Assembly (NCBI RefSeq): GCF_032854445.1
Contig: NC_088303.1
Location: forward strand, 5,835,501-5,899,500
Direction: 5' to 3'
DNA from: Liolophura sinensis
Taxonomy: Eukaryota; Mollusca; Polyplacophora; Chitonida; Chitonidae
Length of the DNA: 64,000 nt
Shown here: positions 15,004 through 58,559 of the stretch, piece after piece
Layout: every line of letters begins with the position of its first letter
Numbering within the stretch: position 1 is the stretch's first letter
Made by a program: the position numbers and the translations under genes
Notes under the pieces: generated by a model
The model's input: only the letters and a program-made list of their open reading frames with translations
The model's database searches: none
Told to the model about the DNA's origin: nothing

Positions 15004-15879
15004 TATCACACCAGCCACCTTTTTTCAAAATCAATAATTTTTGCACCACACAATTCCTGACACTTCTGAACCTCACAGGCAAAATTAGGGCTTGATACAT
15101 GCAGAAACTTTGGAGTTGAATGAATTCAAGTTGGGGTACCCCCATCTTGGACATGTGTCTTTTTTTCAGGGTGAAAAAACTCTGAAGGGTAAACTTTGAA
15201 GCTTTGCAGTGCATATACCGTTCAAGATATCTCCATCAGGTCAACTGTTTTGGAAAGACAAGATGTTTATCTGCAAGAAAAGTTAAAAAAATCACATTGA
15301 CAGAGCACTTTAGACTTTTCAAAAGCAACCATTTAGAGAAATATACATTTTTAAGAAGACTTTTCTACTCAGAGCAGCTTTAAATATGAAAGTTACAAAC
15401 CAAAAGTGTCAAAGCATACATCAAAATATAGGCAATTTATCTGACAATTAAATGTCAAAATATAAGACATTTACTTCAGCAACTATGTGAAAAAAATTGA
15501 CTGACAGTGTGGTAGGGGGTATCAAAGCGGATTGTCACGATTTCGGAACAATCATTTGTGACCAAAATCAAAGCAAGAATAATGCCTCAAGGTGATGAAG
15601 ACCTACTCACAGGCACTTTTTTAGTGGACAGGACTTAAGAAAAGACTAGTATCCCAGTTCCCCACTGAATAGCATGATGAAACCCTTTAAAAGACCACCC
15701 AGCCAGGCATCCCCCCCCCCCCTGCCCTCCTCCCCCATGACTGCTGATTGGCTGACCACCTCACCATGCAAAAACCTCCCTGCACCATTGCTGTTGTCTC
15801 ACAGCAGGTTATTACTCTACACAGTCACATCAAAGGGTGTCACATTGGCATCTACAACATATAAACAGAGAGGAAAAAT
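15004..15879. other. 5' internal region of the Mutator-like element
   Basis: Non-coding as far as can be seen. It includes a poly-C tract near 15,710-15,722. It presumably holds the promoter of the transposase. It has no counterpart in copy 2. Confidence 0.4.
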
Positions 15880-20810: not shown

Positions 20811-23800
20811 TCATAGGGCAATTGTTTTCCAAGTCTCCTTACATAAAATGTCTAGTCCTATGCTGACAAATGTCGGGTGTTTCTTGCTGCCTAGATTCTC
20901 TTCGTCTTTCAAAACTTCCAATAATCTCTTGTTTAATGCCTGTCCAACCCGCTTTCCAGACTGTGAACATATAAAAGTGATAAAAGGTACAAAGGGTTTA
21001 TAAAGAGAATGGAAACTCATACCAGCGTTTTATGTTAAATGTGTGTCACAACTTAAAATTCCAAACAAAATAAAATTGATGACAGCATTGGTTTGGTGTG
21101 TTGTTTACCTTCACTTCAAAGTTAATAAGGTCTGAGGTTATAGTACGTAAACGTTTTGACTACAGTCGTTAATAACACTTCGCATGTGTGGAAAAGTGTA
21201 CATGCAACATCATAAGAAAAGTTAGAAAAAGTGGTTTATAAAGTTCTGTGAAAGTAGAAGTAATATCCTACATATACCTCCATCATATCCAAGACACTAT
21301 CAGGGTGTAGGCTTCCTGATCCTTCCTTCTTTAGGGCTGTCACTGTACCTTTGTCTGTTATTCCCATTATAACTCTGCAAAACAAGTCATGACAGTTTCT
21401 TTCAATGTTAACATGTTAATTTACTCTTTAATTATGATTACTAAAAGTATGGTTTTAAGGAAAATGAAGAAAAATATGCCCCCAAAAAGTAGGGGGAAAA
21501 TTCAATTCATTTTGAGACATTTTTTATATTTCTAAACAACCGCTCTATTTTATGCATATTTTCCATCAATGATCGGAAATGACGTCATCAAGGAAGATAC
21601 GGGGAATGAGGGATCAGCTTAATTAGCACCCCCGATTCGAGCTCCGTCAACTACAAAGCTGTTTTGACTATCACCAATGACATAACGACGGCAGACTACT
21701 TACTTTCCAGACTGATGGCTGGGGATTTATGAAAACTGTAGTTTAAACCCATTTTATGTCCCAAGGAGTAAGCTGAGAAGCTTTATTGCACTTGCATATC
21801 TTAGGACACATCATATACCATGTATTAAGAGAATAAAACCCAAGCTTTTCATAAAACCTTTCATACGTGTATACAAAAGTAGTCTGGTCCATGAGTGGAG
21901 ACTTGAGCAATAGCCTATATTTTACTGGTCACTGGGTCTGTGTGCCTCTATAGTAACGGCACTTTAGATTACTTGGAAAGAGATATTTACTCACATTTAG
22001 GCACAACAACTCATTTACCACCTACAGGTATATCAGGGAGGAGACATAATTTTTAGCACCAGACTGAATCAGCTGTCGTAAAGCCGGGCGTATATTGACC
22101 TTGCGTTTGGCAGCAACTGGGTTTTTGGCAACTGGAAGCAGCGAGCACCATACAACCGGATGCTGGTTTGACCTGATCTACGTGGGCTTGCGGTCACTGA
22201 CAACTGCTGACTCCGTGGCTGCTCGGAGTTGAACATGTTCTACTTTTCTGTAATTCAAAGCATCCACTTGTACCCAGTTCAATCAATCTACGCGTCCTTG
22301 CGCCCATGGTCACAGTTGCTCCCAGTGCATGCATGAGTTCCACTATGAATAATGGCGGCCACTGAGTGGACCCATGAGGCGAAAAATAAGCTCATCCATT
22401 TGTGGAGGCAGCCCGTGATTGTACAACACCTCTTGCTAGGCACAGACAAAGCATATGATGCACATGGGTTGTGTAAGGAGGGAGAAGGCTATAATTAGAA
22501 CAAATTATTAAATTTGTCTATCCTTTCATTAAATGGGGGTATCAAGTGAAAAGTAGGAATAAAAGGACAAGGAAATTTTTCCAACAATCTTAAATTTCAA
22601 AAGAAAAGACAAAGGTACATTAGACATTATATCAAATACATCCACGCATCATGTACAAGGGTCCCACCATCATGAATAGGTCACATGACTATCATGTTGC
22701 TATAAGTGTCTGCTCACAGTTGCCACCAGTCGTAGTCTGAATCTGATCAGACACAGCCAGTGCTCATGATCATAAGGTTTTGTCAAACTTTTCGACATAA
22801 GTGTTGCGCTTAGGTTGACTGTGTTGAGTTGTACCCAGCTGTTTATGATCGCAAGTCAATCTACGCCCTACTTAAATGAAATATTCTTGAGTACAGTGTA
22901 AGACACCAATCAAATAAATAAATAAATAAAAGGCTAGAAATATGCAGAATCTAAGTAAGATTCCAAATCTCATTTCAAGACTTTTTTATATATTCTTGTG
23001 ACATTGACTAAAATGAATCATAAGACTACGGCTCTGCTTTTAGGACCATTGTGAAGCAGCTGAAGCACATCGCCAATTCTTCCTAGCTGCTTAACATCCT
23101 CTCGTTTTATATCTACACTGAACATTAACGTACATGTAGTACAACACCCGTATCTACAGCGTCTACACTGAACATGAATGCACATGTAGTACCACACCTA
23201 TATCTGCAGTTTCTACACTGAACATGAACATACATGTAGTACCACACCTATATCTGCAGTTTCTACACTGAACATGAATGTACATGTAGTACAACACCTA
23301 TATCTGCAGTTTCTACACTGAACATGAATGTACATGTAGTACAACACCTGTATCTGCAGTTTCCACACTGAACATGAATGTACATGTAGTACCACACCTA
23401 TATCTGAAGATTCTACACTGAACATGAATGTACATGTAGTACAACACCTATATCTGAAGATTCTACACTGAACATGAATGTACATGTAGTACAACACCTA
23501 TATCTGCAGTTTCTACACTGAACATGAATGTACATGTAGTACCACACCTATATCTGTTAACATGGAAATATAACAGCTATTTTTACATCCACCATAGATG
23601 TCTGTTTTTGCAACTGCAAAAAAAAAAGCACAAAAACCATTATTGGATCTGAATGACATGACCTCTGTCTTGATTTTAAGGTGTTCTCCTTCTTTTCTAG
23701 TGAATGTAGTGAACTGTCAAGTAACACATGCATACCACTGCATGCTACCTCCAACCAAAACATTGATTGCTGCTATCACAGTGAGAACTTTCTCAGTGCA

Positions 23801-26800
23801 GTGATGAACTCCAATTCAATCCTATGTACTTATTGATTCCATCACATACCTGGCCAGACAGCACGACTCTTCCTTCTGACTGGCATCTACCAAATGGCAG
23901 TTCCCAATCTGAAGAAAGAAAATAAATATCAGTTAAACGTTCAACAAAACATTTACTAATTCAAATGCATTTACAGCTGAATTTATATGACAATGTTCTG
24001 AAGAATTTAGGGGTACTAAGTAGCAAACAAACCACCTGACTCTGCAGTCAAATCAGCAAGGGCTGGATTTGAACCAAAGATAATGGTTTATATAAACCAC
24101 AGTCAGAACAAAGGTTTAGCAAATTTATCAACAAAATTACACACAAGGGTTAAAACTTTACAGGTTTACTAGTTAACATCATCTTTGTAATTCATTCTTT
24201 GAAGTACTTCAACATGAGAACAAATATAACTGTCCATTTAAATTCATTGAGCTTTGGGCCGTGAGAAGATTTAAGTTTTTAACTTGATTACATGAATATG
24301 CATCACAGTTTATACTTTACGCCATGTCTTGAAGTTTGGCTATGCTTGTTTGCAATACCTTGTGACCTCTGTTTAAAATATGAATGAAAGATTATGGTCT
24401 AATGCCAATTTGCTCCGCTTAAAATAGAACATACCTGCAACAACAATTGCATAAAAGTTAATCCACATACATATAGTATTCCAAAACTGAAATTTTGCAT
24501 TGTATGTAACAAACATTTACTATGAATGTTTGTGTAAAGTAAACTTCAGATCAATGTTGTCCTTTTTTATTAACCTACTTCTGCTCTATCTCAAGTTTAC
24601 AAAGAGTGAAGCACATTATCTTCACATGTAACATCTGTGATTTGAAGGAAAAGGTCATGAGAAAATGAGAAAAAAAAACCAATCAATCAGCAGCTAGTAA
24701 AGGCAAGCTTAAACATAGCTCTGAGGCGCTTTCCACAGCTGGTTGCTCCTAGCCAATTAGGGATAACTTACTTGAGGCGAGATGATTGCACTGCATTTTG
24801 CAGGAGAACACTGGGCACCTTACCTTACTGTGTGTGATGAGGGCAAGGGAGGAGATGACACTGGGCACCTTACCTTACTGTGTGTGATGAGGGCAAGGGA
24901 GGAGATGACACTGGGCACCTTACCTTACTGTGTGTGATGAGGGCAGGGGAGGAGACGACACTGGGCACCTTACCTTACTGTGTGTGATGAGGGCAAGGGA
25001 GGAGGCGACACTGGGCACCTCACCTTACTGTGTGTGATGAGGGCAAGGGAGGAGACGACACTGGGCACCTTACCTTACTGTGTGTGATGAGGGCAAGGGA
25101 GGAGACGACACTGGGCACCTTACCTTACTGTGTGTGATGAGGGCAAGGGAGGAGGCGACACTGGGCACCTTACCTTACTGTGTGTGATGAGGGCAAGGGA
25201 GGAGGCGACACTGGGCACCTTACCTTACTGTGTGTGATGAGGGCAAGGGAGGAGACGACACTTGGCACCTTACCTTACTGTGTGTGATGAGGGCAAGGGA
25301 GGAGACGACACTGGGCACCCTACCTTACTGTGTGTGATGAGGGCAAGGGAGGAGGCGACACTGGGCACCTTACCTTACTGTGTGTGATGAGGGCAAGGGA
25401 GGAGACGACACTCGGCACCTTACCTTACTGTGTGATGAGGGCAAGGGAGGAGACGACACTGGGCACCCTACCTTACTGTGTGTGATGAGGGCAAGGGAGG
25501 AGGCGACACTTGGCACCTTACCTTACTGTGTGTGATGAGGGCAAGGGAGGAGGCGCCACTGTGCACCTTACCTTACTGTGTGTGATGAGGGCAGGGGAGG
25601 AGACGACACTGGGCACCTTACCTTACTGAATGTGATGAAAACAGGACAGAAGACAACACTGGGCACCTTACCTTACTGAGTGTGATGAGAACAGAGAGGA
25701 GACGACACTGGGTACCTTACCTTACTGAGTGTGACGAGAACAGGAGAGTAGACAACACTGGGCACCTTGCCGTACTGAGTGTGATGAGAACAGGACAGAA
25801 GACAACACTGGACACCTTACTTTACTGAATGTGATGAGAATAGGGGAGGAGATAACACTGGGCACCTTGCCTTACTGAGTGTGATGAGGACAGGGGAGGA
25901 GACAACACTGGGCACCTTACCTTACTGAGTGTGATGAGAACAGGACAGAAGACAACACTGGACACCTTACTTTACTGAGTGTGATGAGAATAGGGGAGGA
26001 GATAACACTGGGCACCTTGCCTTACTGAGTGTGATGAGGACAGGGGAGGAGACAACACTGGACACCCTACCTTACTGTGTGTGATGAGGGCAAGGGAGGA
26101 GGCGACACTGGGCACCTTACCTTACTGTGTGTGATGAGGGCAAGGGAGGAGACGACACTCGGCACCTTACCTTACTGTGTGATGAGGGCAAGGGAGGAGA
26201 CGACACTGGGCACCCTACCTTACTGTGTGTGATGAGGGCAAGGGAGGAGGCGACACTTGGCACCTTACCTTACTGTGTGTGATGAGGGCAAGGGAGGAGG
26301 CGCCACTGTGCACCTTACCTTACTGTGTGTGATGAGGGCAGGGGAGGAGACGACACTGGGCACCTTACCTTACTGAATGTGATGAAAACAGGACAGAAGA
26401 CAACACTGGGCACCTTACCTTACTGAGTGTGATGAGAACAGAGAGGAGACGACACTGGGCACCTTACCTTACTGAGTGTGACGAGAACAGGAGAGTAGAC
26501 AACACTGGGCACCTTGCCGTACTGAGTGTGATGAGAACAGGACAGAAGACAACACTGGACACCTTACTTTACTGAATGTGATGAGAATAGGGGAGGAGAT
26601 AACACTGGGCACCTTGCCTTACTGAGTGTGATGAGGACAGGGGAGGAGACAACACTGGGCACCTTACCTTACTGAGTGTGATGAGAACAGGACAGAAGAC
26701 AACACTGGACACCTTACTTTACTGAGTGTGATGAGAATAGGGGAGGAGATAACACTGGGCACCTTGCCTTACTGAGTGTGATGAGGACAGGGGAGGAGAC

Positions 26801-29800
26801 AACACTGGACACCTTACCTTACTGAGTGTGATGAGAACAGGGGAGGAGACAACATTCAGACGTTTGACATCGTATGGATCATCAGAGATCTCCAGCTCTG
26901 TGTGCCCTTCTTCCTCAGATACAGTCACATTAGGGATTCTGAAAGTGATGTTTTTTGAATTACAAAAGAAAAGTGTTTTCATAATTTAAAAATACAGGAA
27001 AGGACAGCACAAAAATGAAGCTGGATCAGCAGATAGGCCATTCAAAACTGACCCTCAAAATACATGTGCTCATTTTCTTACACTTTCTGTTTTAACTGAA
27101 TTAATGGAGGTCAAATATTCAAATGGTAGGCTTTATGGACCATACTGCCAGTGGTAAGTACACACACTCTTCAGTATTTCACATCACTGTATTTGCATTA
27201 TATTCATCTACAGGTGAATTCTGAAGAACATCAAAGTAATCTTTTATTCATGGGTAATAACTATTCAAACATTAAAAGGTGTGTTTATAGACAAAACACT
27301 TCTGATTATTTATTTATTTATTTGTCTGGTGTTTTATGCCATACTCAAGAGTATTTCACTTATAAGACGGCGGCTAGCATTATGGTGGATGGAAACCGGG
27401 CAGAGCCGGGGGGAAACCCACGACCATCCGCAGGTTGCTAGCAGAAACACTTCTGATGATGTGATAAACACCACCTATATGGTTCAAAAAGCCCACCATA
27501 TAATTCAAAAATTTAATGCAAATTACAAAAAAAAAACTGAAAAATAAAACAATGATATATTTTTACACATTGTTTAGTCCATCTGATGAGCTTAATTTGA
27601 TTTTTTAGCTTTCCTTCTCTTTAAATGATGGAGTATGCGGTATCCTTTACTTACTTAGTGTTATATAAGGCAGCTTTTACGGCTATTGAAACTGCGTCAA
27701 AGAGATTCCCACCACATTCCAGTAACTATCACAAACAGAAACACAAAACATGTACAGTAACAATCTTAAGCCCCGTCCAGACTATCTAATATCCTTCAAC
27801 TTTTGTCCACTCATCAGCAAGTTCAATGCTGTTGAGGTAAGTTGGGTGTCCTATGTATACTACAAATCAAATAGGTCAACACTGTCCAACACTGGTGTTG
27901 TATGTTGATCAATGTCGAGCTGTGTTCCAAACTTTCGATAAATTGGAGGGAAATTTCCACCTTTCTCTCCAATGCACAATGAGAGACACAATGACCTGCA
28001 CCTGGAAGAATTGTGTCATTGGTTTATCGTTTGTGCTTATTACCATAGCCATACTCCTGTATCAATGAAACTGTCTCCTCTCTCTTTCACCTTTGGCACT
28101 GCCATTTTGCCCAGGTCAATTGCCTTAAGACGGTCACGTTATTTCTACATGCCCGCTGATTGGCTACACTCACTCAACCTGACTCAACTTGTTGACAACA
28201 AATACACGTGCACATTTCCAATTTAACAAAGTTGGATGGTGTTTAATGTTGTTTAACAGAGTTGAAGAACCTGTCCAAACTACTGAACATGGCTCAACTT
28301 GTTCACTCAACTTCAACTTGTCTCTTGTTGGGTCACCAAAAGTTGAGTGATGTTGGGTTGTCTAGACGTGGTTTAAACTAACAATAATCAATCTACAACA
28401 GCAATGTATATGTGATACTACTTGTGATAAGTGTAGTTCAAAACAAATATACATTGCAATGGCAATACATATTTATTTATTTATCTATTTGACTGTTGTT
28501 TAACCCCATACTCTAGAATTTTCCACTTTCATGACGGCAGTCAGTTTTATGGGTTGGAGAAAATGCAGTGCCTGGATAAACCACCACCCTTTGGTAAGTT
28601 ACTACCAAACTTTTCCAATGTGTGACATACATGACATTGGAGGAAGGCAAGGCATGGTCTTCAACAAACATTAGATTACGTCAATGCCCACAAGAGTATC
28701 GTCAACTTCTTATTGTCCATGTTGTCACCAAGGTCCCACAAGCAGTGAGACTGGGAAAATCTGAAAATTCCCTGTGTAAGGCTGGTTTGAACACACACCT
28801 TGTGTTCCTAGAGACTGAAAGTTAAGCACTAACCATAAGACCAGCAATAGTCCGCTAATGTTCATAAATATACGAAGGTGACATAATATATTAAATCAAG
28901 AATCAAGTCTTTGGGTACATGATGAGCAGGTTTCATACTTCCATCATAAGAATGACATGAATTTACTCACGACAAAAGATTTTTAACACTCAGATGTAAT
29001 AGTTGCATGGCATACCACGATATCCACGTTCAGGACCCAACACCGCTGCCCTGGAATAATCACTAAAGAGTTCAGGTCTAAGCTTGTGGCTGTGTCATAC
29101 GCTCGTGCTAGCGTGTTGCTGATTTCTGTGGCTAATTCTTCCCCACCTCGGCCTTCAAACTCGGGAGTGGCATTTGCTGAGCTATTAAAATAAAGGATAT
29201 TCATTTATATCAGAATCAGGCACTGCAGAGGGAGCCTTTGTAGCGCGGTCATCAGCATGCTAGTGCAGCACAATGACTCAGAACCTGGTCACCAATGCAG
29301 TTGCTGTGAGCTCAAGTCCACCTCATGACCTAACCATCGCAGAGCAAAATGCTTTAACCACTTGATCTTGACCCAATACCACACTAAAGTGATAATGACT
29401 GCTTAAAGAAATAACTAAATTATGATATATTGAATTTTTGGGAAAGTGTGAAGTACGAGGTAGCTTGAACATAAAGAATTTTCACAAATTTGGAAAGTCT
29501 TCCACATGCCACATTTAAATGTGTAATCAATTTTCATTTAGAAGCCTGGGGCCTCCGTGGGTCAGTATGTTAGCACACAACCCGGGAGCCTCTCACCAAT
29601 GCGGTCACTGTGAGTTCAAGTCCAGGTCATGCTGGCTTCCTCTCCAGCCATATGTGGGAAGGTGTGCCCGCAATCTGCAGATGGCCATGGGTTTCCAGCG
29701 GGCGCTGTCCGGTTTCCACCCACCATAATGCTGGTTGCCGTTGTATAAGTGAAATATTCTTGAGTACAGCGTAAAACACCAATCAAATAAATAAATACAT

Positions 29801-30044
29801 TTATTTAGAAGCCAGTCTGTGTGATTATAACACAGCTTTCCACTGGCATGAAATTCATGTGAGGTGAAATCATGTCGGATGGATTTCACCAGTCCATCAG
29901 TGAGATTTAAAATTACATGAACTTTATCTGGTTTGGTCTCACTACTCACCAGTCCACAAAGAATTCCAGCCGGCCCTGATTAGGCCTATCAGCAGTGGGC
30001 TGACCCATGTCAGCTTTTACCCCCACCAAAATGTCTGTGTTAGC
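20811..30044 (-). CDS. EXOSC7: Exosome complex component RRP42 (EXOSC7), copy 1, C-terminus altered, 5' exons not found
   Basis: A subunit of the RNase PH-like ring of the RNA exosome, which threads RNA for 3'-5' decay in nucleus and cytoplasm. Seven exons in order: 29,950-30,044; 29,016-29,181; 27,655-27,725; 26,818-26,938; 23,850-23,908; 21,278-21,374; 20,811-20,960. All have GT-AG borders and matching phases. Recognisable blocks: NTDILVGVKADMGQP, LEFFVDCSANATPEFEGRGG, CWVLNVDIVLLECGGNLFDA, VSIAVKAALYNTKIP, ELEISDDPYDVKRL, GNCHLVDASQKEES, VIMGITDKGTVTAL, SGKRVGQALNKRLLEVL. They follow EXOSC7 throughout. A 22-bp deletion between 20,877 and 20,878 removes the usual end (TMGFLK in copy 2) and its stop; the frame runs on as PTFVSIGLDILCKETWKTIAL. 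About 54 N-terminal residues are missing. The family is certain; whether this copy is functional is not. Confidence 0.88.
22082..22872. mobile_element. Degenerate Harbinger-type element with a MADF fragment (copy 1)
   Basis: The ends are inverted (left AGCCGGGCGTATATTGACCT; right, reversed, GTAGGGCGTAGATTGACTTG) and flanked by TAA (22,079-22,081 and 22,873-22,875). Inside, from 22,351, a short + frame reads MAATEWTHEAKNKLIHLWRQ and then HLLLGTDKAYDAHGLCK, the first half of a MADF/Myb-like domain ending near a GTAAG-like splice donor. The rest of the gene is gone. The counterpart is 50,193-50,983 in copy 2, so the insertion predates the duplication. Confidence 0.65.
22874..22930 (+). mobile_element. 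SINE tail, family A (copy 1)
   Basis: Only the 3' end is left: GAAATATTCTTGAGTACAGT, ACACCAATCAAATAAATA. It directly abuts the Harbinger-type element. Copy 2: 50,985-51,041. Confidence 0.65.
23112..23556. repeat. 50-bp minisatellite, about 9 units (EXOSC7 intron, copy 1)
   Basis: The unit begins TCTACACTGAACATGAATGT and continues ACATGTAGTACCACACCTAT, ATCTGCAGTT. Spacing is exactly 50 bases. Copy 2 has about 16 units at 51,233-52,035. It produces spurious frames on the - strand (LHVHSCSV type) that are not genes. Confidence 0.95.
24804..26852 (-). repeat. 50-bp minisatellite made of the SDDPYD exon end plus its splice donor, about 41 units
   Basis: Read on the - strand, each unit is the last ~35 nt of the EXOSC7 exon 26,818-26,938 (GTCTCCTCCCCTGTTCTCAT, CACACTCAGTAAG) followed by the first 15 nt of its intron (GTAAGGTGTCCAGTG). 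The first unit is the real exon end itself. Units nearest the exon carry ACTGAGTGTGATGAGAACAG; those further away are homogenised to ACTGTGTGTGATGAGGGCAA. A block around 25,380-25,900 is repeated around 26,120-26,640, showing a larger duplication. Copy 2 has 27 units (53,281-54,631). Confidence 0.93.
27306..27445 (-). mobile_element. SINE fragment, family A (copy 1)
   Basis: ATTT-repeat tail, GTGTTTTATGCCATACTCAA, ACGGCGGCTAGCATTATGGT, CCACGACCATCCGCAGGTTG. This is the well-preserved 3' part of the SINE read backwards. Copy 2: 55,085-55,224. Confidence 0.8.
27770..28373. mobile_element. MITE with TAA/TTA-flanked inverted ends (copy 1)
   Basis: Left end GCCCCGTCCAGACTATCTAA and reversed right end ACCACGTCTAGACAACCCAA are similar, both continuing into TCAACTTTTG. 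TAA flanks both sides, which suggests a PIF/Harbinger-type MITE. Internally it has repeated CAACTTGTT motifs. No gene is seen. Copy 2: 55,549-56,152. Confidence 0.6.
28471..28600 (-). mobile_element. Diverged SINE fragment, family A (copy 1)
   Basis: ATTT-rich tail, then TTGTTTAACCCCATACTCTA, TCATGACGGCAGTCAGTTTT, ATGGGTTGGAGAAAATGCAG. The order of the SINE is kept but the sequence is strongly mutated. Copy 2: 56,250-56,387. Confidence 0.45.
29229..29335 (+). mobile_element. Diverged SINE head, family A (copy 1)
   Basis: TGTAGCGCGGTCATCAGCAT, GCAGCACAATGACTCAGAAC and TGTGAGCTCAAGTCCACC keep the tRNA-like A and B box order of the SINE at 29,548. Copy 2: 57,022-57,145. Confidence 0.5.
29548..29799 (+). 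mobile_element. Full-length tRNA-derived SINE, family A (copy 1)
   Basis: The head GGGCCTCCGTGGGTCAGTAT with TTAGCACACAACCCGGGAG is tRNA-like, and GAGTTCAAGTCC is a good B box. The body contains TCTCCAGCCATATGTGGGAA and CACCATAATGCTGGTTGCCG. The tail is AAATAAATAAATA. This is the best copy of the family in the window. Copy 2: 57,367-57,618. Confidence 0.85.
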
Positions 30045-30729: not shown

Positions 30730-31504
30730 CTGAGGACTGAGCGGACCTTCCAGTGTACTTGAGGGGACCCACCAGTGTACCTGAGGGCACCCAACAAATT
30801 ACCTGAGGGCACCCACCAATGTACCTGAGGAGACCCATCAATCAACCTGAGGACACCCGTCAGTTTAGCTCAGGTTACTCACCAGGCTACCTGAGGGGTT
30901 CCATCAGTCAGCCGGAGGACACCCATCAGTCAACCTGAGGAAACCTGTCAGTCTAGCTCAAGGTACCCACCAGCCTACCTGATGGCACCCATCAGTTTAG
31001 CTCAGGGTACCCACCAGCCTACCTGAGGACACCCATTAGTTTAGCTCAGGGTACCCACCAGCCTACCTGAGGGGTTCCATCAGTCAACCGGAGGACACCC
31101 ATCAGTCAACCTGAGGAAACCCGTCAGTTTAGCTCAGGGTACCCACCAGGCTACTTGAGGGGTTCCATCAGTCAACCGGAGGATACCGTCAGTCAACCTG
31201 AGGAAACCCGTCAGTTTAGCTCAGGGTACCCACCAGGCTACTTGAGGGGTTTCATCAGTCAACCGGAGGACACCCATCAGTCAACCTGAGGAAACCCGTC
31301 AGTTTAGCTCAGGGTACCCACCAGGCTACTTGAGGGGTTTCATCAGTCAACCGGAGGACACCCATCAGGCAACCTGAGGACACCCGCCAGTCTAGCTCAG
31401 GGTACCCACCAGCCTACCTGAGGACACCCACCAGGCTACCTGAGGACACCCATCAGTCTAGCTCAGGGTACCCACCAGCCTACCTGAGGACACCCACCAG
31501 CCTA
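30730..31504. repeat. 22-bp satellite with 88-bp higher-order unit (copy 1)
   Basis: 22-base monomers such as ACCTGAGGACACCCATCAGT(CA), ACCTGAGGAAACCCGTCAGT(TT), AGCTCAGGGTACCCACCAGG(CT) and ACTTGAGGGGTTTCATCAGT(CA) follow each other. In the middle of the array the four types recur in this order with an 88-base period. Copy 2 (58,560-59,083) is about 240 bases shorter, equal to 11 monomers. Confidence 0.9.
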
Positions 31505-48597: not shown

Positions 48598-50192
48598 TTG
48601 ACATGACTAATATGGGGCAAATTGTCTGAAGAATGAATGAGTTAATGACTGGTAGTAGTTAGTCATTAGACAAAGGAAGTTTATATCTGCCTTTGGAGTA
48701 AATTGAACTGTAGAACTACCCATACATTCTCATTCATTAGCGGGGGCATGGAATCACTGCCTTTAAATTCTGACTGCTATTGGCATGTCAAATGATCCCT
48801 GCATCTTGTCTTGCTGTTAGTCTGGCATTTTCATCCCCTCCAACAAGCATGTCCATGACGGGCCAACACACGAATTCATGGCATTTCACTGCCCCATCAT
48901 CATAGGGCAATTGTTTTCCAAGTCTCCTTACATAAGATGTCTAGTCCTATTCTGACAAATGTCGGGTCACTTCAAAAAACCCATGGTGTGTTTCTTGCTG
49001 CCTAGTTTCTCTTCGTCTTTCAAAACTTCCAATAATCTCTTGTTTAATGCCTGTCCAACCCGCTTTCCAGACTGTGAACATATAAAAGTGATAAAAGGTA
49101 CAAAGGGTTTATAAAGAGAATGGAAACTCATACCAGCGTTTTATGTTAAATGTGTGTCACAACTTAAAATTCCAAACAAAATAAAATTGATGACAGCATT
49201 GGTTTGGTGTGTTGTTTACCTTCACTTCAAAGTTAATAAGGTCTGAGGTTATAGTACGTAAACTTTTTGACTACAGTCGTTAATAACACTTCGCATGTGT
49301 GGAAAAGTGTACATGCAACATCATATGAAAAGTTAGAAAAAGTGGTTTATAAAGTTCTGTGAAAGTAGAAGTAATATCCTACATATACCTCCATCATATC
49401 CAAGACACTATCAGGGTGTAGGCTTCCTGATCCTTCCTTCTTTAGGGCTGTCACTGTACCTTTGTCTGTTATTCCCATTATAACTCTGCAGAACAAGTCA
49501 TGACAGTTTCTTTCAATGTTAACATGTTAATTTACCCTTTGATTATGATTACTAAAAGTATGGTTTTAAGGAAAATGAAGAAAAATATGCCCCCAATAAG
49601 TAGGGGGAAAATTCATTTCATTTTGAGGCATTTTTTATATTTCTAAACAACCCCTCTATTTTATGCATATTTTCCATCAATGATCGGAAATGACGTCATC
49701 AAGGAAGATACGGGGAATGAGGGATCAGCTTAATTAGCACCCCCGATTCGAGCTCCGTCAACTACAAGGCTGTTTTGACTATCACCAATGACATAACGAC
49801 GGCAGGCTACTTACTTTCCAGACTGATGGCTGGGGCTTTATGAAAACTGTAGTTTAAACCCATTTTATGCCCCAAGGAGTAAGCTGAGAAGCTTTATTGC
49901 ACTTTCATATCTTAGGACACATCATATACCATGTATTAAGAGAATAAAACCCAAGCTTTTCATAAAACCTTTAATACATGTATACAAAAGTAGTCTGGTC
50001 CATGAGTGGAGACTTGAGCAATAGCCTATGTTTTACTGGTCACTGGGTCTGTGTGCCTCTATAGTAACGGCACTTTAGATTACTTGGAAAGAGATATTTA
50101 CTCATATTTAGGCACAACAACTCATTTACCACCTACAGCTATATCAGGGAGGAGACATAATTTTTAGCACCAGACTGAATCAGCTGTCGTAA

Positions 50193-50983
50193 AGCCGGGC
50201 GTATATTGACCTTGCGTTTGGCAGCACCTGGGTTTTTGGCAACTGGAAGCAGCTAGCAGCATACAACTGGATGCTGGTTTGAGCTGATCTACGTGGGCTT
50301 GCGGTCACTGACAACTGCTGACTCCGTGGCTGCTCGGAGTTGAACATGTTCTACTTTTCTGTAACTCAAAGCATCCATTTGTACCCAGTTCAATCAATCT
50401 ACGCGTGCTTGCGTCCATGGTCACAGTTGCTCAAAGTGCATGCATGAGTTCCACTATGAATAATGGCGACCACTGAGTGGACCCATGAGGCGAAAAATAA
50501 GCTCATCCATTTGTGGAGGCAGCCCGTGCTTGTACAACACCTCTTGCTAGGCACAGACAAAGCATATGATGCACATGGGTTGTGTAAGGAGGGAGAAGGC
50601 TATAATTAGAACAAATTATTAAATTTGTCTATCCTTTCATTAAATGGGGGTATCAAGTGAAAAGTAGGAATAAAAGGACAAGGAAATTTTTCCAACAATC
50701 TTAAATTTCAAAAGAAAAGACAAAGGTACATTAGACATTATATCAAATACATCCACGCATCATGTACAAGGGTCCCACCATCATGAATAGGTCACATGAC
50801 TATCATGTTGCTATAAGTGTCTGCTCACAGTTGCCACCAGTCGTAGTCTGAATCTGATCAGACACAGCCAGTGCTCATGATCATAAGGTTTTGTCAAACT
50901 TTTCGACATAAGTGTTGCGCTTAGGTTGACTGTGTTGAGTTGTACCCAGCTGTTTACGATCGCAAGTCAACCTACGCCCTACT
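50193..50983. mobile_element. Degenerate Harbinger-type element with a MADF fragment (copy 2)
   Basis: Counterpart of 22,082-22,872 with the same TAA flanks and ends. The fragment reads MATTEWTHEAKNKLIHLWRQ here. Confidence 0.6.
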
Positions 50984-50984
50984 T

Positions 50985-51041
50985 AAATGAAATATTCTTG
51001 AGTACAGTGTAAAACACCAATCAAATAAATAAATAAATAAA
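50985..51041 (+). mobile_element. SINE tail, family A (copy 2)
   Basis: Counterpart of 22,874-22,930, with GAGTACAGTGTAAAACACCA. Confidence 0.6.
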
Positions 51042-51232
51042 AGGCTAGAAATATGCAGAATCTAAGTAAGATTCCAAATCTCATTTCAAGACTTTTTTAT
51101 ATATTCTTGTGACATTGACTAAAATGAATCATAAGACTACGGCTCTGCTTTTAGGACCATTGTGAAGCAGCTGAAGCACATCGCCGATTCTTCCTAGCTT
51201 CTATTCTTTCTACATTCTCTCGTTGTTTTATA

Positions 51233-52035
51233 TCTACACTGAACATTAACATACATGTAGTACAGCACCCGTATCTGCAGATTCCACACTGAACATTAAT
51301 GTACATGTAGTACCACACCCATATCTACAGCTTCTACACTGAACATGAACATACATGTAGTACCACACCTATATCTGCAGTTTCTACACTGAACATGAAT
51401 GTACAAGTAGTACCACACCTATATCTGCAGTTTCTACACTGAACATGAACGTACATGTAGTACCACACCTATATCTGCAGTTTCTACACTGAACATGAAT
51501 GTACATGTAGTACAACACCTACATCTGTAGTTTCTACACTGAACATGAATGTACATGTAGTACAACACCTAGATCTGTAGTTTCTACACTGAACATGAAT
51601 GTACATGTAGTACCACACCTATATACCTATATCTACAGCTTCTACACTGAACATGAACGTACATGTAGTACCACACCTATATATACAGCTTCTACACTGA
51701 ACATGAACATACATGTAGTACAACACCTATATCTTCAGTTTCTACACTGAACATGAATGTACATGTAGCACAACACCCGTATCTGCAGTTTCTACACTGA
51801 ACATGAATGTACATGTAGTACAACACCTATATCTGCAGTTTCTACACTGAACATGAATGTACATGTAGTACCACACCTATATCAGCAGATTCTACACTGA
51901 ACATGAATGTACATGTAGTACCACACCTATATCTGAAGATTCTACACTGATCATGAATGTACATGTAGTACCACACCTACATCTGTAGTTTCTACACTGA
52001 ACATGAATCTACATGTAGTACCACACCTATATCTG
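51233..52035. repeat. 50-bp minisatellite, about 16 units (copy 2)
   Basis: Same TCTACACTGAACATGAATGT unit as 23,112-23,556 but about seven units longer (the copy-to-copy offset rises by 367 bases across it). Confidence 0.95.
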
Positions 52036-53280
52036 TTAACATGGAAATATAACAGCTATTTTTACATCCACCATAGATGTCTGTTTTTGCAACTGCAAAA
52101 AAAAAGCACGAAAACCATTATTGGATCTGAATGACATGACCTCTGTCTTGATTTTAAGGTGTTCTCCTCCTTTTCTAGTGAATGTAGTGAACTGTCAAGT
52201 AACACATGCATACCACTGCATGCTACCTCCAACCAAAACATTGATTGCTGCTATCACAGTGAGAACTTTCTCAGTGCAGTGATGAACTCCAATTCAATCC
52301 TATGTACTTATTGATTCCATCACATACCTGGCCAGACAGCACGACTCTTCCTTCTGACTGGCATCTACCAAATGGCAGTTCCCAATCTGAAGAAAGAAAA
52401 TAAATATCAGTTAAACGTTCAACAAAACATTTACTAATTCAAATGCATTTACAGCTGAATTTATATGACAATGTTCTGAAGAATTTAGGGGTACTAAGTA
52501 GCAAACAAACCACCTGACTCTGCAGTCAAATCAGCAAGAGCTGGATTTGAACCAAAGATAATGGTTTATATAAACCACAGTCAGAACAAAGGTTTAGCAA
52601 ATTTATCAACAAAATTACACACAAGGGTTAAAACTTTACAGGTTTACTAGTTAATATCATCTTTGTAATTCATTCTTTGAAGAACTTCAACATGAGAACA
52701 AATTTAATTGTCCATTTAAATTCATTGAGCTTTGGGCCGTGAGAAGATTTAAGTATTTAACTTGATTACATGAATATGCAATACAGTTTATACTTTACGC
52801 CATGTCTTGAAGTTTGGCTATGCTTGTTTGCAATACCTTGTGACCTCTGTTTAAAATATGAATGAAAGATTATGGTCTAATGCCACTTTGCTCCGCTTAA
52901 AATAGAACATACCTGCAACAACAATTGCATAAAAGTTAATCCACATACATATAGTATTCCAAAACTGAAATTTTGCATTGTAAGTAACAAACATATACTA
53001 TGAATGTTTGTGTAAAGTAAACTTCAGATCAATGTTGTCCTTTTTTATTAACCTACTTCTGCTCTATCTCAAGTTTACAAAGAGTGAAGCACATTATCTT
53101 CACATGTAACATCTGTGATTTGAAGGAAAAGGTCATGAGAAAATGAGAAAAAAAACCAATCAATCAGCAGCTAGTAAAGGCAAGCTTAAACATAGCTCTG
53201 AGGCGCTTTCCACAGCTGGTTGCTCCTAGCCAATTAGGGATAACTTACTTGAGGCGAGATGATTGCACTGCATTTTGCAG

Positions 53281-54631
53281 AACACTGGGCACCTTACCTT
53301 ACTGTGTGTGATGAGGGCAAGGGAGGAGGCGACACTGGGCACCTTACCTTACTGTGTGTGATGAGGGCAAGGGAGGAGACGACACTGGGCACCTTACCTT
53401 ACTGTGTGTGATGAGGGCAAGGGAGGAGACGACACTGGGCACCTTACCTTACTGTGTGTGATGAGGGCAAGGGAGGAGGCGACACTGGGCACCTTACCTT
53501 ACTGTGTGTGATGAGGGCAAGGGAGGAGATGACACTGGGCACCTTACCTTACTGTGTGTGATGAGGGCAAGGGAGGAGACGACACTGGGCACCTTACCTT
53601 ACTGTGTGTTATGAGGGCAAGGAAGGAGGCGACACTGGGCACCTTACCTTACTGTGTGTGATGAGGGCAAGGGAGGAGGCGACACTGGGCACCTTACCTT
53701 ACTGTGTGTGATGAGGGCAAGGGAGGAGGCGACACTGGGCACCTTACCGTACTGTGTGTGATGAGGGCAAGGGAGGAGACGACACTCGGCACCTTACCTT
53801 ACTGTGTGTGATGAGGGCAAGGGAGGAGACGACACTGGGCACCCTACCTTACTGTGTGTGATGAGGGCAAGGGAGGAGGCGACACTGGGCACCTTACCTT
53901 ACTGTGTGTGATGAGGGCAAGGGAGGAGACGACACTCGGCACCTTACCTTACTGTGTGTGATGAGGGCAAGGGAGGAGACGACGCTGGGCACCCTACCTT
54001 ACTGTGTGTGATGAGGGCAAGGGAGGAGGCGACACTTGGCACCTTACCTTACTGTGTGTGATGAGGGCAAGGGAGGAGGCGCCACTGGGCACCTTACCTT
54101 ACTGTGTGTGATGAGGGCAGGGGAGGAGACGACACTGGGCACCTTACCTTACTGAATGTGATGAAAACAGGACAGAAGACAACACTGGACACCTTACCTT
54201 ACTGAGTGTGATGAGAACAGAGAGGAGACGACACTGGGCACCTTACCTTACTGAGTGTGATGAGAACAGGAGAGTAGACAACACTGGGCACCTTGCCTTA
54301 CTGAGTGTGATGAGAACAGGACAGAAGACAACACTGGACACCTTACTTTACTGAGTGTGATGAGAATAGGGGATGAGATGACACTCGGCACCTTGCCTTA
54401 CTGAGTGTGATGAGGACAGGGGAGGAGACAACACTGGGCACCTTACCTTACTGAGTGTGATGAGAACAGGACAGAAGACAAAACTGGACACCTTACTTTA
54501 CTGAGTGTGATGAGAATAGGGGAGGAGATAACACTGGGCACCTTGCCTTACTGAGTGTGATGAGGACAGGGGAGGAGACAACACTAGACACCTTACCTTA
54601 CTGAGTGTGATGAGAACAGGGGAGGAGACAA
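53281..54631 (-). repeat. 50-bp exon-end/splice-donor minisatellite, 27 units (copy 2)
   Basis: Same unit as 24,804-26,852, 14 units shorter. The exon-proximal part again has ACTGAGTGTGATGAGAACAG units and the distal part the homogenised ACTGTGTGTGATGAGGGCAA type. The large internal block duplication of copy 1 is missing. Confidence 0.93.
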
Positions 54632-55084
54632 CATTCAGACGTTTGACATCGTATGGATCATCACAGATCTCCAGTTCTGTGTGCCCTTCTTCCTCAGATA
54701 CAGTCACATTAGGGATTCTGAAAGTGATGTTTTTTGAATTACAAAAGAAAAGTGTTTTCATAATTTAAAAATACAGGAAAGGACAGCACAAAAATGAAGC
54801 TGGATCAGCAGATAGGCCATTCGAAACTGACCCTCAAAATACATGTGCTCATTTTCTTACACTTTCTGTTTTAACTGAATTAATGGAGGTCAAATATTCA
54901 AATGGTAGGCTTTATGGACCATACTGCCAGTGGTAAGTACACACACTCTTCAGTATTTCACATCACTGTATTTGCATTATATTCATCTACAGGTGAATTC
55001 TGGAGAACATCAAAGTAATCTTTTATTCATGGGTAATAACTATTCAAACATTAAAAGGTGTGTTTATAGACAAAACACTTCTGA

Positions 55085-55224
55085 TTATTTATTTATTTAT
55101 TTGTCTGGTGTTTTATGCCATACTCAAGAGTATTTCACTTATAAGACGGCGGCTAGCATTATGGTGGATGGAAACCGGGCAGAGCCAGGGGGAAACCCAC
55201 GACCATCCGCAGGTTGCTAGCAGA
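55085..55224 (-). mobile_element. SINE fragment, family A (copy 2)
   Basis: Counterpart of 27,306-27,445, nearly identical. Confidence 0.75.
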
Positions 55225-55548
55225 AACACTTCTGATGATGTGATAAACACCACCTATATGGTTCAAAAAGCCCACCATATAATTCAAAAATTTAATGCAA
55301 ATTACAAAAAAAAAACTGAAAAATAAAACAATGATATATTTTTACACATTGTTTAGTCCATCTGATGAGCTTAATTTGATTTTTTAGCTTTCCTTCTCTT
55401 TAAATGATGGAGTATGCGGTATCCTTTACTTACTTAGTGTTATATAAGGCAGCTTTTACGGCTATTGAAACTGCGTCAAAGAGATTCCCACCACATTCCA
55501 GTAACTATCACAAACAGAAACACAAAACATGTACAGTAACAATCTTAA

Positions 55549-56152
55549 GCCCCGTCCAGACTATCTAATATCCTTCAACTTTTGTCCACTCATCAGCAAG
55601 TTCAATGCTGTTGAGGTAAGTTGGGTGTCCTATCTATACTACAAATCAAATAGGTCAACACTGTCCAACACTGGTGTTGTATGTTGATCAATGTCGAGCT
55701 GTGTTCCAAACTTTCGATAAATTGGAGGGAAATTTCCACCTTTCTCTCCAATGCACAATGAGAGACACAATGACCTGCACCTGGAAGAATTGTGTCATGG
55801 GTTTATCGTTTGTGCTTATTACCATAGCCATACTCCTGTATCAATGAAACTGTCTCCTCTCTCTTTCACCTTTGGCACTGCCATTTTGCCCAGGTCAATT
55901 GCCTTAAGACGGTCACGTTATTTCTACATGCCCGCTGATTGGCTACACTCACTCAACCTGACTCAACTTGTTGACAACAAATACACATGCACATTTCCAA
56001 TTTAACAAAGTTGGATGGTGTTTAATGTTGTTTAACAGAGTTGAAGAACCTGTCCAAACTACTGAACATGGCTCAACTTGTTCACTCAACTTCAACTTGT
56101 CTCTTGTTGGGTCACCAAAAGTTGAGTGATGTTGGGTTGTCTAGACGTGGTT
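55549..56152. mobile_element. MITE with TAA/TTA-flanked inverted ends (copy 2)
   Basis: Counterpart of 27,770-28,373. Confidence 0.6.
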
Positions 56153-56249
56153 TAAACTAACAATAATCAATCTACAACAGCAATGGATATGTGATACTAC
56201 TTGTGATAAGTGTAGTTCAAAACAAATATACATTGCAATGGCAATACAT

Positions 56250-56387
56250 ATTTATTTATTTATCTATTTGACTGTTGTTTAACCCCATACTCTAGAATTT
56301 TTCTAGAGTAAAAACTTTCATGACGGCAGTCAGTTTTATGGGTTGGAGAAAATGCAGTGCCTGGATAAACCACCACCCTTTGGCAAG
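56250..56387 (-). mobile_element. Diverged SINE fragment, family A (copy 2)
   Basis: Counterpart of 28,471-28,600. A small inverted pair CTCTAGAA / TTCTAGAG has arisen here by local insertion. Confidence 0.4.
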
Positions 56388-57021
56388 TTACTACCAAACT
56401 TTTCCAATGTGTGACATACAGATACATGTTGGAGGAAGGCAAGGCATGGTCTTCAACAAACATTAGATTACGTCAATGCCCACAAGAGTATTGTCAACTT
56501 CTTATTGTCCATGTTGTCACCAAGGTCCCACAAGCAGTGAGATTGGGGAAATCTGAAAATTCCCTGTGTAAGGCTGGTTTGAACACACACCTTGTGTTCC
56601 TAGAGACTGAAAGTTAAGCACTAACCATAAGACCAGCAATAGTCCGCTAATGTTCATAAATATACGAAGGTGACTTCTAATATATTAAATCAAGAATCAA
56701 GTCTTTGGGTACATGATGAACAGGTTTCATACTTCCATCATAAGAATGACATGAATTTACTCACGACAAAAGATTTTTAACACTCAGATGTAATAGTTGC
56801 ATGGCATACCACGATATCCACGTACAGGACCCAACACTGCTGCCCTGGAATAATTACTAAAGAGTTCAGGTCTAAGCTTGTGGCTGTGTCATACGCTCGT
56901 GCTAGCGTGTTGCTGATTTCTGTGGCTAATTCTTCCCCACCTCAGCCTTCAAACTCGGGAGTGGCGTTTGCTGAGCTATTAAAATAAAGGATATTCATTT
57001 ATATCAGAATCAGGCACTGCA

Positions 57022-57145
57022 GAGGGAGCCTTTGTAGCGCGGTCATCAGCGTGCTAGTGCAGCACAATGACTCAGAACCTGGTCACCAATGCAGTTGCTG
57101 TGAGCTCAAGTCCACCTCATGCTGGACTGAACCCACATCGTATTT
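57022..57145 (+). mobile_element. Diverged SINE head, family A (copy 2)
   Basis: Counterpart of 29,229-29,335; copy 2 keeps about 25 bases (CTGGACTGAACCCACATCGT region) lost from copy 1. Confidence 0.45.
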
Positions 57146-57366
57146 GACCTAACCATCGCAGAGCAAAGTGCTTTAACCACTTGATCTTGACCCAATACCA
57201 CACTAAAGTGATAATGACTACTTAAAGAAATAACTAAATTATGATATATTGAATTTTTGGGAAAGTGTGAAGTACGAGGTAGCTTGAACATAAAGACTTT
57301 CCACAAATTTGGAAAGTCTTCCACATGCCACATTTAAATGTGTAATCAATTTTCATTTAGAAGCCT

Positions 57367-57618
57367 GGGGCCTCCGTGGGTCAGTATGTTAGCACACAAC
57401 CCGGGAGCCTCTCACCAATGCGGTCACTGTGAGTTCAAGTCCAGGTCACGCTGGCTTCCTCTCCAGCCATATGTGGGAAGGTTTGTCCGCAATCTGCAGA
57501 TGGCCATGGGTTTCCAGCGGGCGCTGTCCGGTTTCCACCCACCATAATGCTGGTTGCCGTTGTATAAGTGAAATATTCTTGAGTACAGCGTAAAACACCA
57601 ATCAAATAAATAAATACA
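57367..57618 (+). mobile_element. Full-length tRNA-derived SINE, family A (copy 2)
   Basis: Counterpart of 29,548-29,799, with tRNA head, B box GAGTTCAAGTCC and AAATAAATAAATA tail. Confidence 0.85.
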
Positions 57619-58559
57619 TTTATTTAGAAGCCAGTCTGTGTGATTATAACACAGCTTTCCACTGGCATGAAATTCATGTGAGGTGAAATCATGTCGGATG
57701 GATTTCACCAGTCCATCAGTGAGATTTAAAATTACATGAACTTTATCTGGTTTGGTCTCACTACTCACCAGTCCACAAAGAATTCCAGTCGGCCCTGATT
57801 AGGCCTATCAGCAGTGGGCTGACCCATGTCAGCTTTTACCCCCACCAAAATGTCTGTGTTAGCCTGGAGAGGAAAAAATCGACAGTAGAATACATCACAG
57901 AAATCACCACTCCAGCAGCCTTACAAAATTGTTACAACACAACATCAAGCTCATTTAACCAGAGATCAATTTCTTCATTCTATGCTACTTCAGCGGTATG
58001 TTGTACTGCTCCAAAGACGGGCCCCAAGAGAGTGAGATTTGTGATTCAGGTATTTTCTCACAAAATAAAGGAAAAGTTGCAGACTGGGACAGCAACACTA
58101 CTGTACTAGTCAAAAGCTAGATGGGAGCTATTTGTTGCACTTTTGTGTCTAGAGTTACCTCCCTTTGACAGTGTTTTCAGTGGTCTGGTTTACTTGGCAT
58201 GATCTGACAAATTAAGATTTGAAATGATTTTCTGTGAGCAAAGAACAGATGTTTGGTTTCAGGAATATGAATTGTTTTTCTTTTTTGGAAGAATAATGCA
58301 AATAATTTCATATTTACAGATAACTATATTTGTCATATAACTTAGTCATATTAAAATTTGGCATAGTTTTTCCAGTACAACTGCATACACATAACTGCTC
58401 CTTGCACTATCAGAATTTTTCTATATGTTTTGTCAGTTTCTTGGTTTCATGTGATTTAAAGTCACTATTTCATCATACCTTAACAATGTCTATCAGCAAC
58501 AGTAGGAGACAATCTGAATGCCTAGAAATGTTTAGGGCTATATCACTGTACTGAGGACT

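What the first reader, a model, noticed from the sequence alone, without database searches (positions are those of the whole stretch)
24804..26852. A minisatellite built from an exon end and its 5' splice site
Each 50-bp unit equals ~35 nt of the EXOSC7 SDDPYD exon plus 15 nt of intron, with CAGTAAG|GTAAGG preserved in nearly all units. So about 41 copies of a strong donor follow the true one at 50-base spacing, in both gene copies. Established: 5' splice sites pair with U1 snRNA. Inference: the pre-mRNA faces a ladder of competing donors. It might tolerate them by exon definition, yield extended exons, or act as a local U1-binding array that suppresses premature polyadenylation. I know of no described case exactly like this.
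Basis: partly seen in the sequence, partly recalled or inferred. Interest (0 to 1): 0.85.

Follow-up and report, generated by a model that had tools for sequence, protein, structure and literature searches.

The report
Splice-donor minisatellite in a mollusc gene
The end of one exon and its splice signal have been copied dozens of times into the neighbouring intron; this looks like a tolerated accident that recurs in other genes of this animal and resembles repeats known from amphioxus, so it is useful mainly as a natural test of how cells choose among identical splice sites.

Summary
The array is real: 41 units of about 50 bp (36 nt of EXOSC7 exon 6 plus 14 nt of intron) follow the exon's donor on the minus strand; the second window copy has 27. 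The exact motif CAGTAAG|GTAAGG is kept in 26 of 41 units, not nearly all. Both window copies are damaged duplicates without exons 1-2; an intact copy just outside the window carries 19 units. Donor positions in the units change about as often as the rest (p=0.84, low power), so a U1-binding function is unsupported. Every decoy donor would give an in-frame stop (40/40, 26/26, 18/18), so the first donor should normally be used. The class is not new: tandemly repeated splice junctions ('mirages') are described in amphioxus. New is the setting: mitochondrial gene order points to a mollusc, and 8 of 142 donors and 5 of 120 acceptors sampled in four other gene families show the same structure. Array edges are not concentrated at junctions. 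Best reading: passive tandem duplication in a minisatellite-rich genome, tolerated because the exon-adjacent site is chosen.

The parts
26818..26938 (-). EXOSC7 exon 6 of copy A (121 nt); true donor AAG|GTAAGG after base 26818
   Evidence: RRP42 match; exon limits carried over from the intact copy C
24810..26853 (-). Array A: 41 units (37 of 50 bp, two of 49, two of 48); unit 1 is the exon's own last 36 nt plus 14 intron nt
23850..23908 (-). EXOSC7 exon 7 of copy A (59 nt), acceptor side of the array intron
   Evidence: limits carried over from copy C
54597..54717 (-). EXOSC7 exon 6 of copy B
   Evidence: limits carried over from copy C
53284..54632 (-). Array B: 27 units (26 of 50 bp, one of 49)
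52328..52386 (-). EXOSC7 exon 7 of copy B
   Evidence: limits carried over from copy C
56810..56975 (-). EXOSC7 exon 4 of copy B, with an in-frame TGA
   Evidence: tblastn shows a stop in the exon; limits carried over from copy C
30751..31504 (-). 22-bp minisatellite in what corresponds to intron 2; copy A has no recognised EXOSC7 exon beyond it. In copy C a like array abuts the exon 2 donor, with weak resemblance to the junction
20880..30044 (-). Truncated EXOSC7 copy A (exons 3-9; the last exon lacks the end of the coding sequence)
48973..57863 (-). Truncated EXOSC7 copy B (exons 3-9, stop codon in exon 4)

Best explanation
It is a mirage-type minisatellite: a segment holding the last 36 nt of EXOSC7 exon 6 and the first 14 nt of its intron was duplicated in tandem and then expanded. 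The array sits inside the intron and is transcribed with it. The donor next to the real exon is normally used, most likely because it is paired across the exon with the upstream acceptor (exon definition); the decoys are removed with the intron. The array has no function that the sequence reveals. Shown: structure, origin from the exon, presence in an intact gene copy, no detected donor-specific conservation, frame damage from any decoy, and recurrence at other genes. Inferred: that the first donor is used, that exon definition is the reason, and that the array is neutral.
For: Unit equals exon end + intron start. Copy C encodes an unbroken 290-aa EXOSC7 (splice sites set by me from the sequence) with 19 units behind exon 6. 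Unit order is shared by A, B and C, so the array is older than the gene duplications. Donor sites -3..+6 show a mean of 1.0 inferred changes per site against 1.06 (rest of the exon part) and 1.375 (rest of the intron part), Mann-Whitney p=0.84, 39 haplotypes from 87 units. Every decoy gives an in-frame stop: 40 of 40, 26 of 26, 18 of 18. The same structure occurs at 8 of 142 donors and 5 of 120 acceptors sampled (read by eye), and at a RPTOR exon. Array left edges are spread about evenly from the exon into the intron, and 17% of the window is minisatellite. In amphioxus, RT-PCR suggests that mirages do not disturb splicing (PMC3087553, passages read).
Against: No RNA data: use of the first donor is inferred. 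The conservation test has only nine donor sites. In all four positional comparisons donor sites differ less than the rest (A-B 1 of 135 against 11 of 614; A-A block 0 of 135 against 2 of 612; A-C 1 of 81 against 6 of 368; B-C 0 of 81 against 6 of 368), none significant (p 0.60-1.0), so weak constraint is not excluded. Most decoys remain strong, which neutrality allows but does not require. Genome-wide, donor-motif triplets are more numerous than any of three control motifs (3086 windows against 2370, 1452, 1010).
Confidence: 0.82

Rival explanations
1. The array is a U1 snRNP-binding array that suppresses premature cleavage and polyadenylation in the intron (telescripting).
For: Most decoys keep a strong donor: exact AAG|GTAAGG in 26 of 41, 19 of 27, 13 of 19 units; the 9-mer scores above 87% of 142 sampled donors. 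Donor sites differ slightly less than the rest in positional comparisons, not significantly.
Against: No donor-specific conservation on the unit tree. The intron is 1811 nt in the intact gene and holds one AATAAA and one ATTAAA; intron 7 is 5384 nt with one AATAAA and five ATTAAA and has no AGGTAAG. Counted as separate arrays, donor-motif arrays are not significantly denser than control-motif arrays (8 in 2.94 Mb against 15 in 10.03 Mb, p=0.21; counted by eye on capped listings).
Confidence: 0.04
2. The units act as dual-specific or recursive splice sites: AG|GT in each unit serves as 3' and 5' site, so the intron is removed in steps, or units are joined and the donor is regenerated.
For: Each unit ends in a pyrimidine-rich stretch, CAG and usually TAAG|GTAAGG; tandem arrays of dual-specific AGGT sites are used in human UBC (PMC10809524, passages read). 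L013, an array elsewhere in this genome, has units ending CTCCCCTTTTATAG|GTAAGAA.
Against: As acceptors the units score poorly: median 2.39 for CAG|TAAG, at the 1.6th percentile of 125 sampled acceptors (which were themselves called by score), and -2.08 (A) or -2.74 (B, C) for TAAG|GTAAGG; the true exon 7 acceptor scores 7.5 (with a recalled human-like matrix). CAG|TAAG use would insert an in-frame TAA.
Confidence: 0.07
3. Decoys are used at some level, giving extended exons with early stops, so that copy number tunes EXOSC7 output through nonsense-mediated decay.
For: Every decoy gives an in-frame stop and many match the true donor in strength; copy number differs 41/27/19.
Against: No RNA evidence; no sign that decoys or copy number are maintained; the arrays with the most units are in the damaged copies A and B.
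Confidence: 0.06
4. Assembly artefact: collapsed or mis-stacked repeats, or haplotypes laid in tandem.
For: The copies are about 95-98% alike, a level that allelic copies could reach in a mollusc (recalled).
Against: Three copies on one 37-Mb contig with copy-specific damage, different copy numbers and shared unit order; exact copy numbers may still be off.
Confidence: 0.03

Closest known systems
Amphioxus 'mirages' (Adh3, globin BflGb6/BflGb9, PGBD5, TnC)
   Same: [quoted passage not shown] either the 5' or the 3' boundary can be duplicated; unit lengths 10-160 bp in Adh3 and the globins; copy number varies between haplotypes (PMC3087553, passages read; PMC3902484, one passage read). The founding paper (PMC117041) was not held.
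   Different: Here the host is a mollusc by mitochondrial gene order, the array has up to 41 units (BflGb6 has 3 and 6), and junction arrays turned up in four unrelated gene families sampled here.
Internal tandem repeats at exon-intron boundaries of human segmental-duplication genes
   Same: Minisatellite expansion at a boundary within duplicated genes (PMC2812944, passages read).
   Different: Those average about four 30-bp units and are discussed as sources of new introns; here the array lies in an existing intron.
Intron gain by tandem duplication of an AGGT segment
   Same: The duplicated segment contains AG|GT (PMC4974935, passages read).
   Different: No new intron inside coding sequence is seen; the duplication crosses an existing donor.
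Tandem dual-specific splice sites in polyubiquitin UBC
   Same: AGGT at each repeat boundary (PMC10809524, passages read).
   Different: UBC repeats are coding; these units are intronic, stop-introducing and weak as acceptors.

Membership tests
Mirage (splice-junction minisatellite) | Tandem repeat whose unit spans an exon-intron boundary | tested here: met
   36 exon + 14 intron nt per unit, exon identified by RRP42 match
Mirage (splice-junction minisatellite) | Splice signals repeated in many units | tested here: met
   GT intact in 35 of 41, 24 of 27, 16 of 19 units
Mirage (splice-junction minisatellite) | Length instability between copies | tested here: met
   41, 27 and 19 units; a 15-unit block is duplicated in A (units 2-16 and 17-31 differ at 2 of 747 sites). 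These are paralogues, not haplotypes
Mirage (splice-junction minisatellite) | Normal mRNA despite the repeats | not testable with these tools
   No RNA data; of the exon 6 forms tested only the unextended one lacks a stop
Mirage (splice-junction minisatellite) | Reported host group is cephalochordate | tested here: not met
   Mitochondrial gene order fits the ancestral mollusc arrangement (genes named by eye, comparison order recalled). A taxonomic setting, not a structural definition
U1 telescripting array | Donor sites conserved above the rest of the unit | tested here: not met
   Mean 1.0 against 1.06 and 1.375 changes per site, p=0.84; limited power, and positional comparisons lean slightly the other way without significance
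Recursive / dual-specific splice-site array | Each unit works as an acceptor as well as a donor | tested here: inconclusive
   AG|GT present, but acceptor scores are at the bottom of the sampled range; no junction reads
Intron gain by tandem duplication | New intron within formerly coding sequence | tested here: not met
   The array lies in the intron between exons 6 and 7, where the human protein continues K-IG; whether human EXOSC7 has an intron there was not tested

The most novel reading that the evidence does not exclude
In this mollusc about one splice junction in twenty, donors and acceptors alike, has been multiplied into a minisatellite. The genome then holds thousands of natural competition tests in which one exon-adjacent splice site must beat many near-identical neighbours. 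Equal tolerance at both exon ends would mean that exon definition, rather than order of synthesis or nearness across the intron, decides splice choice in this lineage, and would make that question testable genome-wide from ordinary RNA-seq.
Probability: 0.4. Interest if true: 0.7.

Novelty: new member of a known kind. Interest (0 to 1): 0.47.

Why it matters
A single array is a curiosity. If the sampled rate (13 of 262 junctions, at about ten loci) holds, this genome offers many cases where near-identical donors or acceptors stand side by side, in genes whose protein product tells which site must be used. That would let RNA-seq from one animal measure splice-site choice by position alone. It would also extend mirages from amphioxus to a mollusc, suggesting that junction-spanning minisatellites follow from a high minisatellite birth rate rather than from something peculiar to lancelets.

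Tried and rejected
Donor/acceptor asymmetry: after the first sample (7 donor and 2 acceptor cases of 83 exons, by eye) I expected donor arrays to be better tolerated than acceptor arrays, as first-come-first-served splicing would predict. The second sample did not support it: over both samples 8 of 142 against 5 of 120, Fisher p=0.78.

Junction anchoring: I expected arrays to start preferentially at donors. Left edges are spread about evenly (six between -100 and 0, seven between 0 and 100, five between 100 and 200; one more case, at about -113, fell outside the cut), so there is no sign of a junction-specific birth mechanism.

Genome-wide enrichment of donor-motif arrays: windows with three AGGTAAG number 3086, more than for each control: 1452 (reversed), 2370 (GATGAAG) and 1010 (its reverse). 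These counts are swelled by a few very large arrays. Counted by eye as separate arrays in the listed stretch of contig 1 (listings are capped), 8 in 2.94 Mb against 15 in 10.03 Mb, p=0.21. Not significant.

Exon 2 of copy C as a second mirage: its donor runs into a 22-bp array, but the junction 30-mer scores 13, below the cut of 18; a 44-mer scores 21. Left as possible. The other seven donors tested in copy C score 7-11, apart from exon 6 (28), and the eight acceptors 7-11.

Amphioxus as the host: considered because of mirages; set aside because of the mitochondrial gene order.

Literature that led nowhere: earthworm metallothionein introns (PMC12783039, passages read) hold minisatellites, but the passages seen do not describe repeated splice junctions. 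Searches found no paper; one search gave a list from which only PMC10809524 was opened; of one search I saw the listing only.
Full report
What was claimed and what is there. That is right. Tandem Repeats Finder places it at 24808-26854 with period 50 and 41 copies, and a second array at 53282-54633 with 27 copies. On the minus strand each unit is 36 nt of exon end followed by 14 nt of intron. The exon's translation matches human RRP42/EXOSC7 in solved exosome structures at E about 5e-7, ending at the same lysine. The wording 'preserved in nearly all units' is too strong: CAGTAAG|GTAAGG is exact in 26 of 41, 19 of 27 and 13 of 19 units.

Three gene copies. A genome-wide DNA search with a two-unit query found 48 matches at three places, on one contig about 28 and 31 kb apart. 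Only the third copy, outside the window, shows exons 1 and 2; with splice sites that I set from the sequence it reads through as 290 amino acids. Copies A and B begin in what corresponds to intron 2; A has lost the end of its last exon and B has a TGA in exon 4. So the window shows two damaged duplicates, and the array also sits in the intact gene, with 19 units. Unit order is shared among the three arrays (for example the 49-bp unit and the unit starting GG), so the array is older than the duplications. Array A contains a 15-unit block twice, differing at 2 of 747 sites.

Is the donor conserved? I collapsed 87 units to 39 haplotypes, built a tree and counted changes per site. Donor sites average 1.0, the other exon sites 1.06, the other intron sites 1.375; Mann-Whitney p=0.84. 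Between positional counterparts, donor sites differ at 1 of 135 against 11 of 614 elsewhere (A-B), 0 of 135 against 2 of 612 (the repeated block in A), 1 of 81 against 6 of 368 (A-C) and 0 of 81 against 6 of 368 (B-C). All four lean towards fewer donor differences and none is significant. The tests have limited power; they give no support to a selected U1 array and do not exclude weak constraint. The decoys remain strong: 26 of 40, 18 of 26 and 12 of 18 score at least as high as the true donor.

What would decoy use do? Extending exon 6 by any number of units and joining exon 7 gives an in-frame stop in 40 of 40, 26 of 26 and 18 of 18 cases. The protein needs the first donor. As acceptors the units are poor, so stepwise removal is not favoured.

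Is EXOSC7 special? To find out I sampled exons of four families that have nothing to do with it: Cpn60/TCP1 and myosin head, adaptin and HECT. Of 230 listed matches I fetched and used 155 (83 and 72). Donors were called for 142 and acceptors for 125, of which 120 had enough upstream sequence. I aligned each 30-nt junction with the adjoining 250 nt of intron; 1684 and 1423 mismatched pairs gave maxima of 16 and 15. At a score of 18 or more, a cut chosen after seeing those maxima, 8 of 142 donors and 5 of 120 acceptors are repeated next to themselves. The cases read by eye are clear: for example AACTACCTCACACAG|GTGAGTCTGAGCTTG at the head of a 31-bp array of about 14 copies behind a myosin exon. 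One further acceptor case (C8:53412069) was seen by eye and is not in the count; three arrays that begin within about 30 nt of a donor without clear likeness to the exon were not counted either. The cases are not all independent: three pairs lie within a few kb of each other (C8:53405971 and 53407400; C12:684214 and 686729; C7:4455542 and 4461495), so the 13 cases stand at about ten loci. The two samples differ (7 donors and 1 acceptor, then 1 and 4). Separately, of eight donor-motif arrays fetched from contig 1, one starts at the donor of a RPTOR exon (PDB match E=5e-11) and one at what looks like a 43-nt exon; the other six were not tied to an exon by eye.

More than chance? The match between exon end and array is far beyond chance. 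The placement at a junction is not shown to be: array coverage rises smoothly from the exon into the intron and left edges are spread about evenly; 17% of the window is minisatellite. Genome-wide, windows with three donor motifs (3086) outnumber three control motifs (2370, 1452, 1010), but counted by eye as separate arrays on contig 1 the density does not differ significantly (8 in 2.94 Mb against 15 in 10.03 Mb, p=0.21). The simplest account is a high genome-wide rate of tandem duplication, with duplications that cross a junction surviving because splicing ignores the extra copies.

Why would splicing ignore them? If the site nearest across the intron won, the last donor and the first acceptor copy would be used and exons would be extended. 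If order of synthesis decided, donor arrays should be tolerated but acceptor arrays not. Both kinds occur at similar rates (Fisher p=0.78), which fits exon definition, where the sites flanking the real exon are paired. This is inference from a small sample.

Known relatives. Tandem repeats across exon-intron boundaries are described in amphioxus as 'mirages', many with AG/GT signals, and RT-PCR suggests normal splicing (PMC3087553, passages read; PMC3902484, one passage read; the founding paper was not held). Human boundary repeats, intron gain by AGGT duplication and the UBC dual-specific array are more distant (passages read). Full-text searches of the held library for mirage + minisatellite + amphioxus, minisatellite + splice donor + intron + mollus, chiton + genome assembly + tandem repeats + introns, minisatellite + splice donor + tandem repeat + intronic and tandem duplications / intron-exon boundaries / mirages (20 of 47 listed) showed no mollusc example in the listings; the chiton genome paper listed was not read, and most subscription papers are not held.

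Host. The mitochondrial contig (15209 bp) carries COX3-ND3-ND2-COX1-COX2-ATP6 on one strand and ND1-ND6-CYTB-ND4L-ND4-ND5 on the other (genes named by eye). By recalled gene orders this is the ancestral mollusc arrangement, as in chitons. The species was not identified.

Verdict. An ordinary member of a known but little-known class, in a new host, in a genome where the class seems common.

Noticed in passing
C8:53405971-53406162 (L023): A TCP1-family exon (CCT gamma-like, recalled) is followed by 66-bp units that look open and in frame by eye, so decoy use there could add 22-residue repeats rather than stops.
   Followed up: no
window 1-64000 and C9:5899501-5939500: The region is a threefold tandem duplication holding a glutathione S-transferase-like gene (named by eye) on the plus strand and EXOSC7 on the minus strand; in copy A the truncated EXOSC7 ends at a minisatellite matching that of intron 2 in copy C.
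   Followed up: partly
C1:1375382-1381670 (L014 holds the start): A donor-motif array of over 6 kb with a 54-bp unit and AGGTAAG in many units; no exon identified.
   Followed up: partly
C1:1329114-1329328 (L013): A 52-bp array whose units end CTCCCCTTTTATAG|GTAAGAA, resembling a chain of recursive splice sites.
   Followed up: no
G000 contig C99: Seven COX1 matches spaced about 15.5 kb apart, apparently a head-to-tail concatemer of the mitochondrial genome.
   Followed up: no
window 4022-6635 and 15865-17718: Transposase-like open frames by eye (a HARBI1-like stretch, recalled, and a 617-aa frame), not searched.
   Followed up: no
window 23112-23556 and 51233-52035: A second 50-bp minisatellite in EXOSC7 intron 7, in copy A about 300 nt beyond the exon 7 donor; not seen to resemble a junction.
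   Followed up: no
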